From Micromonospora sp. MW-13 (lineage in GTDB: Bacteria > Actinomycetota > Actinomycetes > Mycobacteriales > Micromonosporaceae): a stretch of DNA of 64,000 nt. A program made the position numbers and the translations under genes. Each line of letters starts with the position of its first letter. The first letter of the stretch is position 1. Shown here piece by piece: positions 20,984-23,017 of the stretch. Under the pieces are notes generated by a model. It did no database searches. It was not told the DNA's origin and saw nothing but the letters and a program-made list of their open reading frames with translations. Location: the NCBI RefSeq assembly GCF_003434305.1, contig NZ_QKKX01000009.1, positions 248,001 through 312,000 on the forward strand, in the 5' to 3' direction.

Positions 20984-21112
20984 CCGCGACCGGTGGACCG
21001 ACCAGGTCGACGGACTGACCGTCCCGGGCCGGCCCCGCCGCCGCTCGCGTCCCGGTTTCGGCCTCGGCCGAGTTGTCCCCGGCGCCGCTGGTCCGGCAGC
21101 ATCGACCGGCAT

Positions 21113-21233
21113 GTCACGTCGCCGGGTTGGGGGCGGCCCGTCGGGGGTCACGTCGCCGGGTTGGCGGGCTGTCCGTCGGGGGTCACGTCGCCGGGTTGAC
21201 GGGCCGGCCGTCGGAGGTCACGTCGCCGGGTTG
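21113..21233. repeat. Tandem 34/35-bp repeat, 3.5 copies, at the end of a GNAT gene
   Basis: The 17-mer GTCACGTCGCCGGGTTG starts at 21113, 21147, 21182 and 21217, giving periods of 34, 35 and 35 bp with near-identical spacers. The minus-strand GNAT gene ends inside the array at 21183. Since 35 is not a multiple of three, each unit is read in a new frame, and the stop TGA falls within the second repeat met by the ribosome. Spacing and spacer similarity are those of a minisatellite, not a CRISPR. Confidence 0.88.
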
Positions 21234-21758
21234 CCTGCCGGCAGTCAGGTCGAGCCACATGAGGATCTCGTCCCGGTCGTCGCCCGGGGCGACCCGCAGC
21301 GCGCCCGGCAACCGGCCCACCTCTCGGTAGCCGAGCCGCGTGTAGAACCGCTCCAGCCCCAGCCCGCCGCGTACGGTCACGTGCAGCGCCTCCCGGCCCA
21401 GCTTCCGTCCGAGCCGCTCCGCCTCACGCATCAGTGCCAGCCCGTGCCCCCGGCCCTGGGTGTCGGGGTGCACCATCACCCGCTTCAGCACGCACCAGTG
21501 CGCCTTGAGGTGGAACCGGTTGTCGGCGAAGACCAGCACGGCCACCGGGTGTGCGTCGTCGTACCCGACGAGCAGCCGGTCCGGGCCGTCGACGACGTCG
21601 GCGAAGGTCGTCTCGGCGACGGGGCGGACGTCGGCAACGGTGACCGGCGCGACGAAGCCGACCGCGCCGCCGGCGTTGGTGACGTCGACCCAGAGGCGGA
21701 CGATCTCCTCGCGCAGTTCGGGGGTCAGCTCGGGGTCGAGGACGAAGTGCAGACTCAC
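21183..21758 (-). CDS. GNAT family N-acetyltransferase
   Basis: A 191-residue acetyltransferase. The core has VLKRVMVHPDTQGRGHGLAL, the acetyl-CoA pyrophosphate loop (Q/R-x-x-G-x-G/A), then LHVTVRGGLGLERFYTRLGY (late helix and strand). The acceptor is unknown. The GTG at 21758 (VSLHFVLDPELTP) is preferred over an ATG at 21797 because family-like sequence begins there. The last ~14 residues are encoded by a 35-bp tandem repeat, so the C-terminus is repeat-derived and probably variable between strains. Confidence 0.83.
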   Translation of the reverse strand: MSLHFVLDPELTPELREEIVRLWVDVTNAGGAVGFVAPVTVADVRPVAETTFADVVDGPDRLLVGYDDAHPVAVLVFADNRFHLKAHWCVLKRVMVHPDTQGRGHGLALMREAERLGRKLGREALHVTVRGGLGLERFYTRLGYREVGRLPGALRVAPGDDRDEILMWLDLTAGRQPGDVTSDGRPVNPAT

Positions 21759-21847
21759 GCCGCCATCCTGCCCAGCGGCCACGGGGACCGTCCCCATCGA
21801 GTGACGCGTCCGACACCGCCCTGGACGGGCGGTGAGGTGGGTAGAAG

Positions 21848-21922
21848 TAGGGCCGACGGGATTCGAACCCGCACTGGTGCGGACCTAAACCGCATGCCTC
21901 CTGCCAGTTGGGCTACGGCCCC
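21848..21922 (-). tRNA. tRNA with anticodon UAG and short variable loop (Leu by codon), overlapping the HNH gene
   Basis: A complete 75-nt cloverleaf: 7-bp acceptor stem (GGGGCCG with CGGCCCT, G1-U72 at the end), T8/A9, D arm of 18 nt with G18-G19, anticodon stem TGCGG/CCGCA around loop TTTAGGT (anticodon UAG), 5-nt variable loop CCAGT, T arm with loop TTCGAAT, discriminator A73. CCA is not encoded. Tertiary contacts T8-A14, A15-T48, G19-C56 and T54-A58 are all possible. The anticodon reads leucine CUA (and by wobble CUG), yet bacterial tRNA-Leu normally has a long variable arm; the D arm resembles a Leu-type arm (three pairs, TGGCAG). T8-A9-G10 is the stop codon of the HNH gene. Charging and function are unknown. 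Confidence 0.82.
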
Positions 21923-22509
21923 TTGACCATGTACACCGTCATTCTCCACGACCACTCACGCGGTTGACGAAGTCGCCTACCGATCGGGAAACCGGTTGGT
22001 GTCACGGCCTTCGGATCGTAGACCACATCGGGCGCGACCACACCCGCCCGGCGGGCACCGGCGTACGTGGCGGTCTGGCTGTGGCAGTTGGGGCAGAGCA
22101 GCCGGAGGTTGTGCGGCCGGTTGTCCAGGAAGTCGCCGTTGATGTGATCGACGTGCAGGGTGAGTGCCGCTCCCTGCCAGATCGGGCCGGTGCCACACCC
22201 CTCGCACTCCTCGGGCAGCCCGATCAGCGCGAGTGCGCGTTTCAGCCGGGTGCCGGCGACCCGTCGCGCCCCCTCGGGTCGCTGGGTCAGCAGCGCCGAC
22301 GCAGGAATCCGTACCCTGCGCTCGCCCCGGTTGTGCGCTTGCCCGGTGAAGTGCGAGGTGTCGATGCCGAAGCGCTTGAGCTGGCGGCTGATGTGGGCGT
22401 GCGAACCCCCGCTGAGGCGGACGCCCAGCAGTCGCAGCACCTCGGTGACGCTGCGCGCCTGCACTGCCGCGGCGGCCAACGCCTCTGGCGGGTACTTGTA
22501 ACGGGCCAC
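21913..22509 (-). CDS. HNH endonuclease whose stop codon lies inside a tRNA
   Basis: A 198-residue protein. The N-terminal part (~1-60) looks like a DNA-binding helix-turn-helix (LAAAAVQARSVTEVLRLLGV, then HAHISRQLKRFGID). The C-terminal nuclease has zinc pairs CEGC (102/105) and CPNC (139/142) framing the HNH residues His122 (LHVDHINGD), Asn134 and His143. The family occurs in phages and actinobacterial chromosomes. The final codons GGG-CCG-TAG form nucleotides 2-10 of the downstream tRNA (first G is tRNA position 2), so RNase P cleavage of a joint transcript would remove the stop codon. No phage genes are nearby. Confidence 0.88.
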   Translation of the reverse strand: MARYKYPPEALAAAAVQARSVTEVLRLLGVRLSGGSHAHISRQLKRFGIDTSHFTGQAHNRGERRVRIPASALLTQRPEGARRVAGTRLKRALALIGLPEECEGCGTGPIWQGAALTLHVDHINGDFLDNRPHNLRLLCPNCHSQTATYAGARRAGVVAPDVVYDPKAVTPTGFPIGRRLRQPREWSWRMTVYMVKGP

Positions 22510-22540: not shown

Positions 22541-23017
22541 TCAGTCCAGCCCGAGGTCGCGGCGCAGCTTGGCGACGTGGCCGGTGGCCTTGACGTTGTA
22601 GAGCGCCCGCTCGATCTTCCCGTCCGGGTCGATGACGAAGGTGGAGCGGATCACCCCGGTCACGGTCCGGCCGTAGGACTGCTTCTCGCCGTACGCGCCG
22701 TACGCGGTGAGCACCGCCTTGTCGGCGTCGGCGACCAGCGGGAAGGTGATGGCGTCCCGCTCGCGGAACTTGGCCAGCTTCTCCGGCTTGTCGGGGGAGA
22801 TGCCGACCACCTCGTAGCCGGCCGCCTGGAGCGAGGCGAGCGAGTCGCGGAAGTCACACGCCTGCTTGGTGCAGCCGGGCGTCATCGCGGCGGGGTAGGC
22901 GTACAGGATCACCTTCCGGCCGCGCAGGTCGGCCAGCGAGAGGGTGTCGCCGGTGTCGGTCGGCAGGGTGAACTCGGGCGCGGGGTCACCGGGGTTGAGG
23001 CGGGCGGGCGCGGTCAT
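22541..23017 (-). CDS. bcp: Thioredoxin-dependent peroxiredoxin Bcp
   Basis: A 158-residue AhpC/TSA-fold peroxidase that reduces hydrogen and organic peroxides in the cytosol. The peroxidatic Cys49 is in AMTPGCTKQAC and the resolving Cys54 five residues later, the arrangement of atypical 2-Cys BCP enzymes. Downstream are VVGISPDKPEKLAKF and STFVIDPDGKIE. The ATG is 7 nt from a -10 TAGGGT (23025-23030), so the transcript is probably leaderless. Confidence 0.95.
   Translation of the reverse strand: MTAPARLNPGDPAPEFTLPTDTGDTLSLADLRGRKVILYAYPAAMTPGCTKQACDFRDSLASLQAAGYEVVGISPDKPEKLAKFRERDAITFPLVADADKAVLTAYGAYGEKQSYGRTVTGVIRSTFVIDPDGKIERALYNVKATGHVAKLRRDLGLD

What the first reader, a model, noticed from the sequence alone, without database searches (positions are those of the whole stretch)
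21848..21922. A well-folded tRNA with UAG anticodon but no long variable arm
The 75-nt gene folds as a complete type I tRNA with all main tertiary contacts possible, yet its anticodon UAG belongs to leucine, which in bacteria is read by tRNAs with long variable arms. It would read CUA and by wobble CUG. Discriminator A73 and a Leu-like D arm suggest leucylation is possible, but another amino acid would mean reassignment of CUG or CUA. Such a molecule could be a regulatory or mistranslating tRNA. Seen in sequence: structure. Inference: charging and function.
Basis: partly seen in the sequence, partly recalled or inferred. Interest (0 to 1): 0.8.

Follow-up and report, generated by a model that had tools for sequence, protein, structure and literature searches.

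The report
Short tRNA-Leu(UAG), the only CUA reader
This bacterium seems to have lost the normal long-armed transfer RNA that reads the leucine codon CUA and uses a short-armed, virus-like version in the same chromosomal place, next to a gene for a DNA-cutting enzyme that may move it; related species have swapped the two versions many times.

Summary
Window 21848-21922 (minus strand) is a real tRNA-Leu(UAG) with a 5-nt variable loop. It is not an extra, regulatory or recoding tRNA: it is the only tRNA-Leu(UAG) found in the genome. In 61 genomes, 21 carry this short form and the other 40 the normal long-armed form; none has both, none neither. CUA codons of short-form genomes align with leucine (66.2 of 71 sites where the reference codon is not CUA), so the code is unchanged. 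The tRNA keeps the leucine identity set known from E. coli. In the genus (Micromonospora, by inference) both forms sit at one orthologous locus behind a peroxiredoxin gene. The form needs at least 9 changes on a tree of the flank, 8 forced by supported branches, and in four readable sister pairs the difference is confined to about 0.25-0.55 kb around the tRNA. An HNH endonuclease gene overlaps the tRNA's 5' end here and in relatives; the same HNH family overlaps tRNA genes in phages, where short tRNA-Leu also occurs. Best reading: a phage-type tRNA-Leu replaced the host's sole CUA decoder by short allelic replacement, possibly promoted by the HNH enzyme. Charging, expression and HNH cleavage are inferred, not shown.

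The parts
21848..21922 (-). class I (short variable loop) tRNA-Leu(UAG) gene, 75 nt, no encoded CCA
   Evidence: ARAGORN, RF00005 50.1 bits, covariation in 108 relatives, sequence
21913..22509 (-). HNH endonuclease gene (198 aa, GTG start); its stop codon TAG is U8-A9-G10 of the tRNA, a 10-nt overlap
   Evidence: ORF; Pfam HNH_3 5.7e-6, above its cut-off; phrog_10822 2.4e-42; stop ends at +10 of the tRNA in 6 of 7 short-form genus genomes with an HNH hit
22015..22020 (-). TACGAT, a -10-like element inside the HNH 3' end; candidate tRNA promoter (inference)
   Evidence: GTGGTYTACGATCC is present upstream of the tRNA in 11 of 11 short-form genomes of the genus, including the 4 without an HNH hit
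22541..23017 (-). bcp-type peroxiredoxin (start codon by my choice of ATG), upstream neighbour of tRNA-Leu(UAG)
   Evidence: Pfam AhpC-TSA 5.6e-40; upstream in 36 of 37 genus genomes and in G037, G039, G045
21183..21797 (-). GNAT acetyltransferase, the downstream flank
   Evidence: Pfam Acetyltransf_1 1.4e-10; found downstream in 36 of 37 genus genomes, mostly within 250 nt of the tRNA start, up to +4451 in G026

Best explanation
The gene is a working tRNA-Leu(UAG) of class I architecture. It is the only tRNA-Leu(UAG) found in this genome and so the decoder of CUA (and perhaps a second decoder of CUG). It is charged with leucine by the ordinary LeuRS through A73, A15-U48, G18G19 and A20a (inferred from the identity set and from CUA = Leu). 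It belongs to a tRNA-Leu lineage that also occurs in phages and mobile tRNA arrays, and it stands in place of the canonical long-armed tRNA-Leu(UAG) at the same chromosomal slot behind bcp. Shown by comparison: alternation at one locus, mutual exclusion, short replacement tracts, unchanged codon meaning. Inferred: the replacement is promoted by the overlapping HNH gene acting as a free-standing homing endonuclease that cuts an allele without it, with the tRNA carried along by co-conversion. My confidence is about 0.9 for the sole-decoder and in-place replacement part and about 0.5 for HNH as the driver.
For: Sole decoder: RF00005 finds 51 tRNAs in G000, all 51 were read, and the long Leu genes are CAA, UAA, CAG and GAG only (and for the window's own). 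Over 61 genomes: short form 21, long form 40, both 0, neither 0; chance of no overlap at these totals 8e-17, ignoring relatedness. Single-contig genomes G002 and G019 are among the 21. Code unchanged: CUA = Leu at 66.2 of 71 sites when reference CUA codons are left out, 84.0 of 88 with them in. Same locus: bcp upstream in 36 of 37 genus genomes. Repeated change: at least 9 changes of form among 35 genomes, 8 forced by well-supported branches. Short tracts: sisters G019(I)/G021(II) differ over about -120 to +120; G029/G034, G030/G028 and G009/G022 over about -420 to +120, with flanks mostly above 90%. HNH: the stop codon lies inside the tRNA in the window and in Gordonia phage Sixama, Pseudomonas phage PPSC2 and Vibrio phage D69. 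Of the 80 best viral HNH relatives, 45 have a same-strand tRNA starting -40 to +150 from the HNH stop, 20 of them overlapping it. Leucine identity elements: PMC9976931 passages; U48 in 105 and A73 in 108 of 108.
Against: No RNA, charging or cleavage data. Only 7 of 11 short-form genomes in the genus have an HNH hit, and 10 of 26 long-form ones do too, so HNH does not track the form. Of 120 viral loci with the short tRNA-Leu(UAG), 5 have an HNH hit and 1 has it adjacent. In the 80 viral HNH loci a tRNA also ends just upstream of HNH in 38, so part of the adjacency reflects tRNA arrays, and 35 of 80 have no tRNA close behind. Plain homologous recombination between species could move the tRNA without HNH. 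LeuRS acting on a class I tRNA-Leu was not tested. The flank tree is a local tree, itself open to recombination.
Confidence: 0.82

Rival explanations
1. Reassigning or mistranslating tRNA: it carries another amino acid to CUA or CUG.
For: Class I body with a leucine anticodon; in yeast mitochondria an unusual tRNA-Thr with anticodon UAG reassigns CUN (PMC7609411 passage).
Against: CUA sites align with Leu, 66.2 of 71; no other residue exceeds 1.6. Complete leucine identity set. Short relatives carry the other Leu anticodons too, which fits an anticodon-blind LeuRS.
Confidence: 0.03
2. Accessory, regulatory or decoy tRNA beside a canonical tRNA-Leu(UAG).
For: In two mycobacteria a cluster-borne short tRNA-Leu(TAG) does sit beside a normal one (PMC6582537 passage).
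Against: No canonical gene found in any of 21 short-form genomes among 61, and no long-form pattern match in any of 34 short-form genomes of a class-wide sample.
Confidence: 0.04
3. In-place shortening: the long tRNA lost its variable arm repeatedly by deletion.
For: Same locus, and much the same D-loop sequence AA..GGCAGA in both forms.
Against: Acceptor stem, D-stem pair 12-23, anticodon stem and upstream sequence differ. The short genes of scattered genus species are 93-99% identical to the window's and share an HNH-derived upstream segment, which points to one incoming lineage.
Confidence: 0.05
4. Replacement by ordinary homologous recombination between species, with the HNH gene only a hitchhiker.
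For: HNH is missing or broken in many genomes of both forms; flanks are conserved enough for recombination.
Against: HNH overlaps the tRNA in a class-specific way, and its family sits beside tRNA genes in distant phages. In three pairs the replaced tract begins inside the HNH gene.
Confidence: 0.4
5. Escape from tRNA-cutting toxins or defence nucleases that attack the long variable arm drives the change.
For: Septu and retron-Eco7 cut tRNA-Tyr at its variable loop, and phage T5 tRNA-Tyr resists retron-Eco7 through its distinctive variable loop (PMC13096335 passages). Short tRNA-Leu genes occur in actinophages.
Against: No such nuclease against tRNA-Leu was sought here. Phages also carry long tRNA-Leu, and the other four tRNA-Leu genes of G000 are long.
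Confidence: 0.25

Closest known systems
Canonical bacterial class II tRNA-Leu(UAG)
   Same: Anticodon, A73, A15-U48, D-loop AA..GGCAGA (in most), codon read, chromosomal slot behind bcp
   Different: 5-nt variable loop instead of a long arm; different acceptor stem; A9 (113 of 118) instead of G9 (51 of 52); phage-type relatives
Cluster-borne short tRNA-Leu(TAG) of two mycobacteria, MmucT and MphoT (PMC6582537, passages)
   Same: Short variable loop, same anticodon, HNH gene in the cluster, suspected phage origin
   Different: There an addition beside a normal gene; here the only such gene, in place of the normal one. Sequences were not compared; its supplement was not open to me.
SegB of T4-like phages, a homing endonuclease tied to tRNA genes (PMC13096335, abstract and passages)
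   Same: Free-standing nuclease beside tRNA genes that promotes their inheritance or amplification
   Different: Acts in phages; not compared in sequence here; in the window the nuclease gene overlaps the tRNA at a chromosomal locus holding the sole isoacceptor
HNH endonuclease genes in mycobacterial tRNA arrays (PMC5966550, passages)
   Same: HNH genes were the most widespread protein genes among the array groups, and were suggested to act on tRNA content
   Different: Arrays of many tRNAs on chromosomes, plasmids and phages; not a single tRNA in place of the normal gene
Animal mitochondrial tRNA-Leu
   Same: Leucine tRNA without a long arm, charged by LeuRS (PMC9976931 passage)
   Different: Organelle; no relationship of locus

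Membership tests
tRNA (RF00005) | covariance-model score and conserved cloverleaf | tested here: met
   50.1 bits against 29; 2157 of 2160 cells paired, 15 of 20 pairs with two-sided changes
bacterial tRNA-Leu | leucine identity set A73, A15-U48, G18G19, A20a | tested here: met
   Window sequence by my numbering; A73 in 108 of 108, U48 in 105 of 108; in 33 BLAST-selected short Leu genes A15 in 33, U48 in 32, A73 in 33, one doubtful row dropped
bacterial tRNA-Leu | reads a leucine codon as leucine | tested here: met
   CUA aligned with Leu at 66.2 of 71 sites; indirect, since no protein was sequenced
bacterial tRNA-Leu | long variable arm (class II) | tested here: not met
   5-nt loop in 108 of 108; so it works as a tRNA-Leu but is not a class II tRNA-Leu
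bacterial tRNA-Leu | charged by LeuRS | not testable with these tools
   needs an aminoacylation assay
allo-tRNA (8/4 or 9/3 arms) | acceptor/T arm of 8/4 or 9/3 base pairs | tested here: not met
   7/5 arms
free-standing HNH homing endonuclease | HNH nuclease domain | tested here: met
   PF13392 above its cut-off (26.3 against 24.8 bits), PF01844 just below (20.5 against 21.4); phrog_10822 2.4e-42
free-standing HNH homing endonuclease | present or absent at one locus among relatives, with decayed copies | tested here: met
   hit in 17 of 37 genomes; truncated or frameshifted in G010, G014, G022
free-standing HNH homing endonuclease | cuts the allele that lacks it and spreads by co-conversion | not testable with these tools
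   short replacement tracts fit it but do not show cleavage

The most novel reading that the evidence does not exclude
Two rival selfish cassettes, each an HNH endonuclease gene overlapping its own tRNA-Leu(UAG), compete for one chromosomal site. Each carries a complete replacement for the host's only CUA decoder, so the host cannot lose the tRNA half. The short-armed version also evades nucleases that attack long-armed tRNAs.
Probability: 0.25. Interest if true: 0.88.

Novelty: new variant of a known kind. Interest (0 to 1): 0.74.

Why it matters
[quoted passage not shown] Here free-living bacteria appear to rely on a short tRNA-Leu as the only reader of a sense codon, and the short and long forms replace each other at one locus within a genus. 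That gives natural pairs of close relatives for testing how LeuRS tells tRNA-Leu from other tRNAs, whether the long arm has any essential role, and how a gene that should be essential can be exchanged by mobile nucleases.

Tried and rejected
Reassignment of CUA and an accessory tRNA were tested and rejected. A dedicated second LeuRS was considered: each of the 61 genomes shows one full-scoring LeuRS, except G000 with two (C30, C46), so a second LeuRS does not go with the short form (the list is cut among weak matches). That actinophage tRNA-Leu are always short was rejected: long ones occur too. That the HNH family is specific for tRNA-Leu(UAG) was rejected: of 45 adjacent tRNAs, 22 are tRNA-Leu, 8 of them UAG, and the rest are many kinds. 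Folding energy was uninformative.

Left unfinished: whether short tRNA-Leu(UAA) replaced the long one in G038, G053 and G044. One BLAST query found no long form there, but it found none in G042 either, and the RF00005 list was cut before all class II genes. For Thermobifida fusca (L267, handle G448) 49 of 52 tRNAs were listed; of 8 low-scoring ones read, the UAG gene is short and the long Leu genes are CAG, CAA and GAG. That no long UAG gene is among the 3 unlisted is likely, not shown.

Limits of counts. Of the 40 long-form genomes, 33 were read by ARAGORN and 7 of other families (G043, G044, G047, G055, G057, G059, G060) rest on the matched text. The class-wide patterns match neither form in 140 of 394 genomes, because the long-form pattern misses some families. 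That scan's pattern fixes A14, A15, G18, G19 and A20a, so only U48 and A73 are free there. G001 and G025 (too little flank) and G037, G039, G045 (other families) were left out of the flank tree; G023 filled 45% of its columns. Genes for the codon test were called by my own base-composition rule; the 71 sites come from 7 genomes, 51 of them from G000 and G002. The 8 phage HNH regions opened were picked by me from 25 listed of 152 records, and four of the five positive ones are two pairs of related phages.

Full report
What is there. The window holds one tRNA gene, at 21848-21922 on the minus strand. It has a UAG anticodon, a 5-nt variable loop and A73. Across 108 distinct relatives 2157 of 2160 stem cells are standard pairs and 15 of 20 pairs show two-sided changes, so the structure is under selection. 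The three D-stem pairs are fixed by the search pattern for most rows and say nothing.

It is the sole tRNA-Leu(UAG) found. In the window's own assembly RF00005 finds 51 tRNAs; all were read, and the long-armed leucine genes are CAA, UAA, CAG and GAG. In 61 genomes (37 of the same genus, 24 of the same order) the short form is in 21. The long form is in the other 40: 26 seen by a loop pattern and 14 by BLAST followed by ARAGORN. None has both and none has neither. Nineteen of the 21 short-form genomes gave one CAG and one GAG gene as long-form matches; G045 gave one match (CAG) and G050 two GAG matches; none gave UAG. In a class-wide sample of 394 genomes the short pattern hits 34, the long pattern 220 and both 0, with 140 matching neither. 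In one family with good coverage (f35) the count, made by eye from those tables, is 9 short, 31 long, 0 both and 2 neither of 42. The hypergeometric values (8e-17, 1e-13, 1e-7) ignore relatedness.

The code is unchanged. Reading frames called by base composition in 14 short-form genomes (11 of the genus, G037, G039, G045) were compared with long-form relatives. CUA sites align with leucine at 84.0 of 88 sites, or 66.2 of 71 when reference CUA codons are left out, from 7 genomes. The reverse control gives 113.1 of 128. A review (passages read) gives the E. coli leucine identity set as A73, A15-U48, G18G19 and A20a, with neither the long arm nor the anticodon needed. By my numbering the window tRNA has all of these. 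Among 38 other class I tRNAs of G000, 27 have G15 and 27 have C48.

Same place, two forms. In the genus, tRNA-Leu(UAG) of either form lies behind bcp in 36 of 37 genomes (G001 is cut by a contig edge), and the GNAT gene lies downstream in 36 of 37 (G035 has no hit). bcp also precedes the short form in G037, G039 and G045. Among the 119 short-form stretches of the capped genome-contig scan, bcp lies on the same strand within 1 kb upstream in 34, counted by eye from the rows, for example in Thermobifida fusca, Nocardioides lacusdianchii, Asanoa ishikariensis, Micromonospora orduensis and M. wenchangensis (names). In most of the rest no bcp hit lies there, so the slot is not universal. The genus name for the window is my inference from the last two, which share its flanks. 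On a tree of 3.3 kb of flank from 35 genomes the form needs at least 9 changes, 8 forced by well-supported branches; shuffled labels need 9.6 on average, so the form is not clustered at all.

Replacement tracts. Identity in 60-nt steps: G019(I)/G021(II) differ over about -120 to +120 around the tRNA start; G029/G034, G030/G028 and G009/G022 over about -420 to +120, with flanks mostly above 90%. G009/G033 is similar but falls earlier, near -600 to -540. In G000/G006, G010/G032 and G026/G018 at most one edge can be read, because insertions spoil the alignment. The same-form pairs G000/G011 and G002/G029 show no such drop, apart from 70-73% just behind the tRNA in the first. Acceptor stems, anticodon stems and upstream sequence differ between the forms, so this is replacement and not trimming of an arm.

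The HNH gene. A 198-aa HNH protein gene lies between bcp and the tRNA and ends inside it: its stop TAG is U8-A9-G10. Six of seven short-form genomes with a hit have exactly this; G010 has a longer HNH gene upstream plus a remnant of the tail. Long-form genomes carry an HNH protein that shares roughly the first 160 residues and has another C-terminus; in G017, G028, G033, G034 and the shortened G014 it ends at position 15 of the long tRNA (U13-A14-A15 where the tRNA was printed: G014, G028, G034), while in G008, G012, G018, G020 and G022 it ends elsewhere. Hits occur in 17 of 37 genomes, 7 of 11 short and 10 of 26 long. In the four short-form genomes without a hit, GTGGTYTACGATCC from the HNH 3' end is still there, perhaps as the tRNA promoter. 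The family is phrog_10822. In Gordonia phage Sixama it ends at the same U8-A9-G10 of a short tRNA-Leu(UAG); in Pseudomonas phage PPSC2 at U8-G9-A10 of a short one; in Vibrio phage D69 at U13-A14-A15 of a long one. Of eight phage regions opened, five have tRNA-Leu(TAG) directly behind HNH. Of the 80 best viral relatives, 45 have a same-strand tRNA starting -40 to +150 from the stop, 20 of them overlapping, and 35 have none; tRNAs also end just upstream in 38 of 80. Among the 119 short-form genome stretches 13 have an HNH hit and in 12 it ends within 60 nt of the tRNA start (counted from the rows). Against a role of HNH as the usual vehicle: of 120 viral stretches with the short tRNA-Leu(UAG) only 5 have an HNH hit and 1 has it adjacent.

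Where the short form comes from. The window tRNA matches 86 phage records, mostly actinophages, and 2 plasmids. Short tRNA-Leu genes with UAG, UAA, CAA, CAG and GAG anticodons sit in the actinophages opened and in chromosomal tRNA arrays, beside tRNA-Ser and tRNA-Tyr genes that keep long arms; some arrays also hold long tRNA-Leu (L026, L027, L257). Within the genus short tRNA-Leu(UAG) genes are 93-99% identical to the window's; in other families 81-92%. One import of an HNH-tRNA cassette into the genus followed by spread between species fits best; the direction of each change is not settled.

What is known. Eight of the nine literature searches bore on this question (one search was on phage T5). 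In their listings and in the passages I read, the one mention found of a short bacterial tRNA-Leu is in PMC6582537: a cluster-borne tRNA-Leu(TAG) with a short variable loop beside a normal one. Its supplement and most subscription papers were not open to me. [quoted passage not shown] PMC11555353 (passages) shows phage tRNAs countering such nucleases; PMC5966550 (passages) reports HNH genes in mycobacterial tRNA arrays. A sole short isoacceptor that replaces the long one in place was not found in these searches.

Verdict. A real and unusual feature: a class I tRNA-Leu(UAG) as the sole CUA decoder found, alternating with the class II form at one locus, with an overlapping tRNA-associated HNH gene. 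Charging, expression and HNH activity remain to be shown.

Noticed in passing
G000:C46:72502-74940 and G000:C30:82928-85702: The window's genome has two LeuRS genes of different type; the other 60 genomes show one full-scoring LeuRS each. The extra one could be a resistance-type LeuRS (guess).
   Followed up: no
L022, L023, L024 (CAA); L025, L030 (UAA): Lone short tRNA-Leu genes with CAA or UAA anticodons; they may have replaced those isoacceptors too.
   Followed up: partly
L026-L029: Dense tRNA arrays in genomes of the genus (16-25 tRNAs in about 3 kb) holding short tRNA-Leu(CAG), (GAG) or (CAA); L026 and L027 also hold a long tRNA-Leu(CAG).
   Followed up: no
L082 and L112-L122: Long tRNA-Leu(UAG) of the genus falls into several diverged subtypes; the GGCGTAA subtype has U13, which supplies the HNH stop codon in some genomes.
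   Followed up: partly
L257 (Nonomuraea plasmid NZ_CP107854.1): Plasmid tRNA array with short tRNA-Leu(AAG) and (CAG) and a long tRNA-Leu(CAA).
   Followed up: no
L068 (G000:C47:67693-67765): A weak tRNA-like gene (40.9 bits) that ARAGORN reads with a four-base anticodon gcaa.
   Followed up: no
L177 (G026): The GNAT gene lies about 4.3 kb further from the tRNA than in most relatives, suggesting an insertion right behind the short tRNA.
   Followed up: no
window 21073-21330: Frames here repeat GGHVAGL/VTSPG-like units, suggesting a short tandem repeat beyond the GNAT gene.
   Followed up: no
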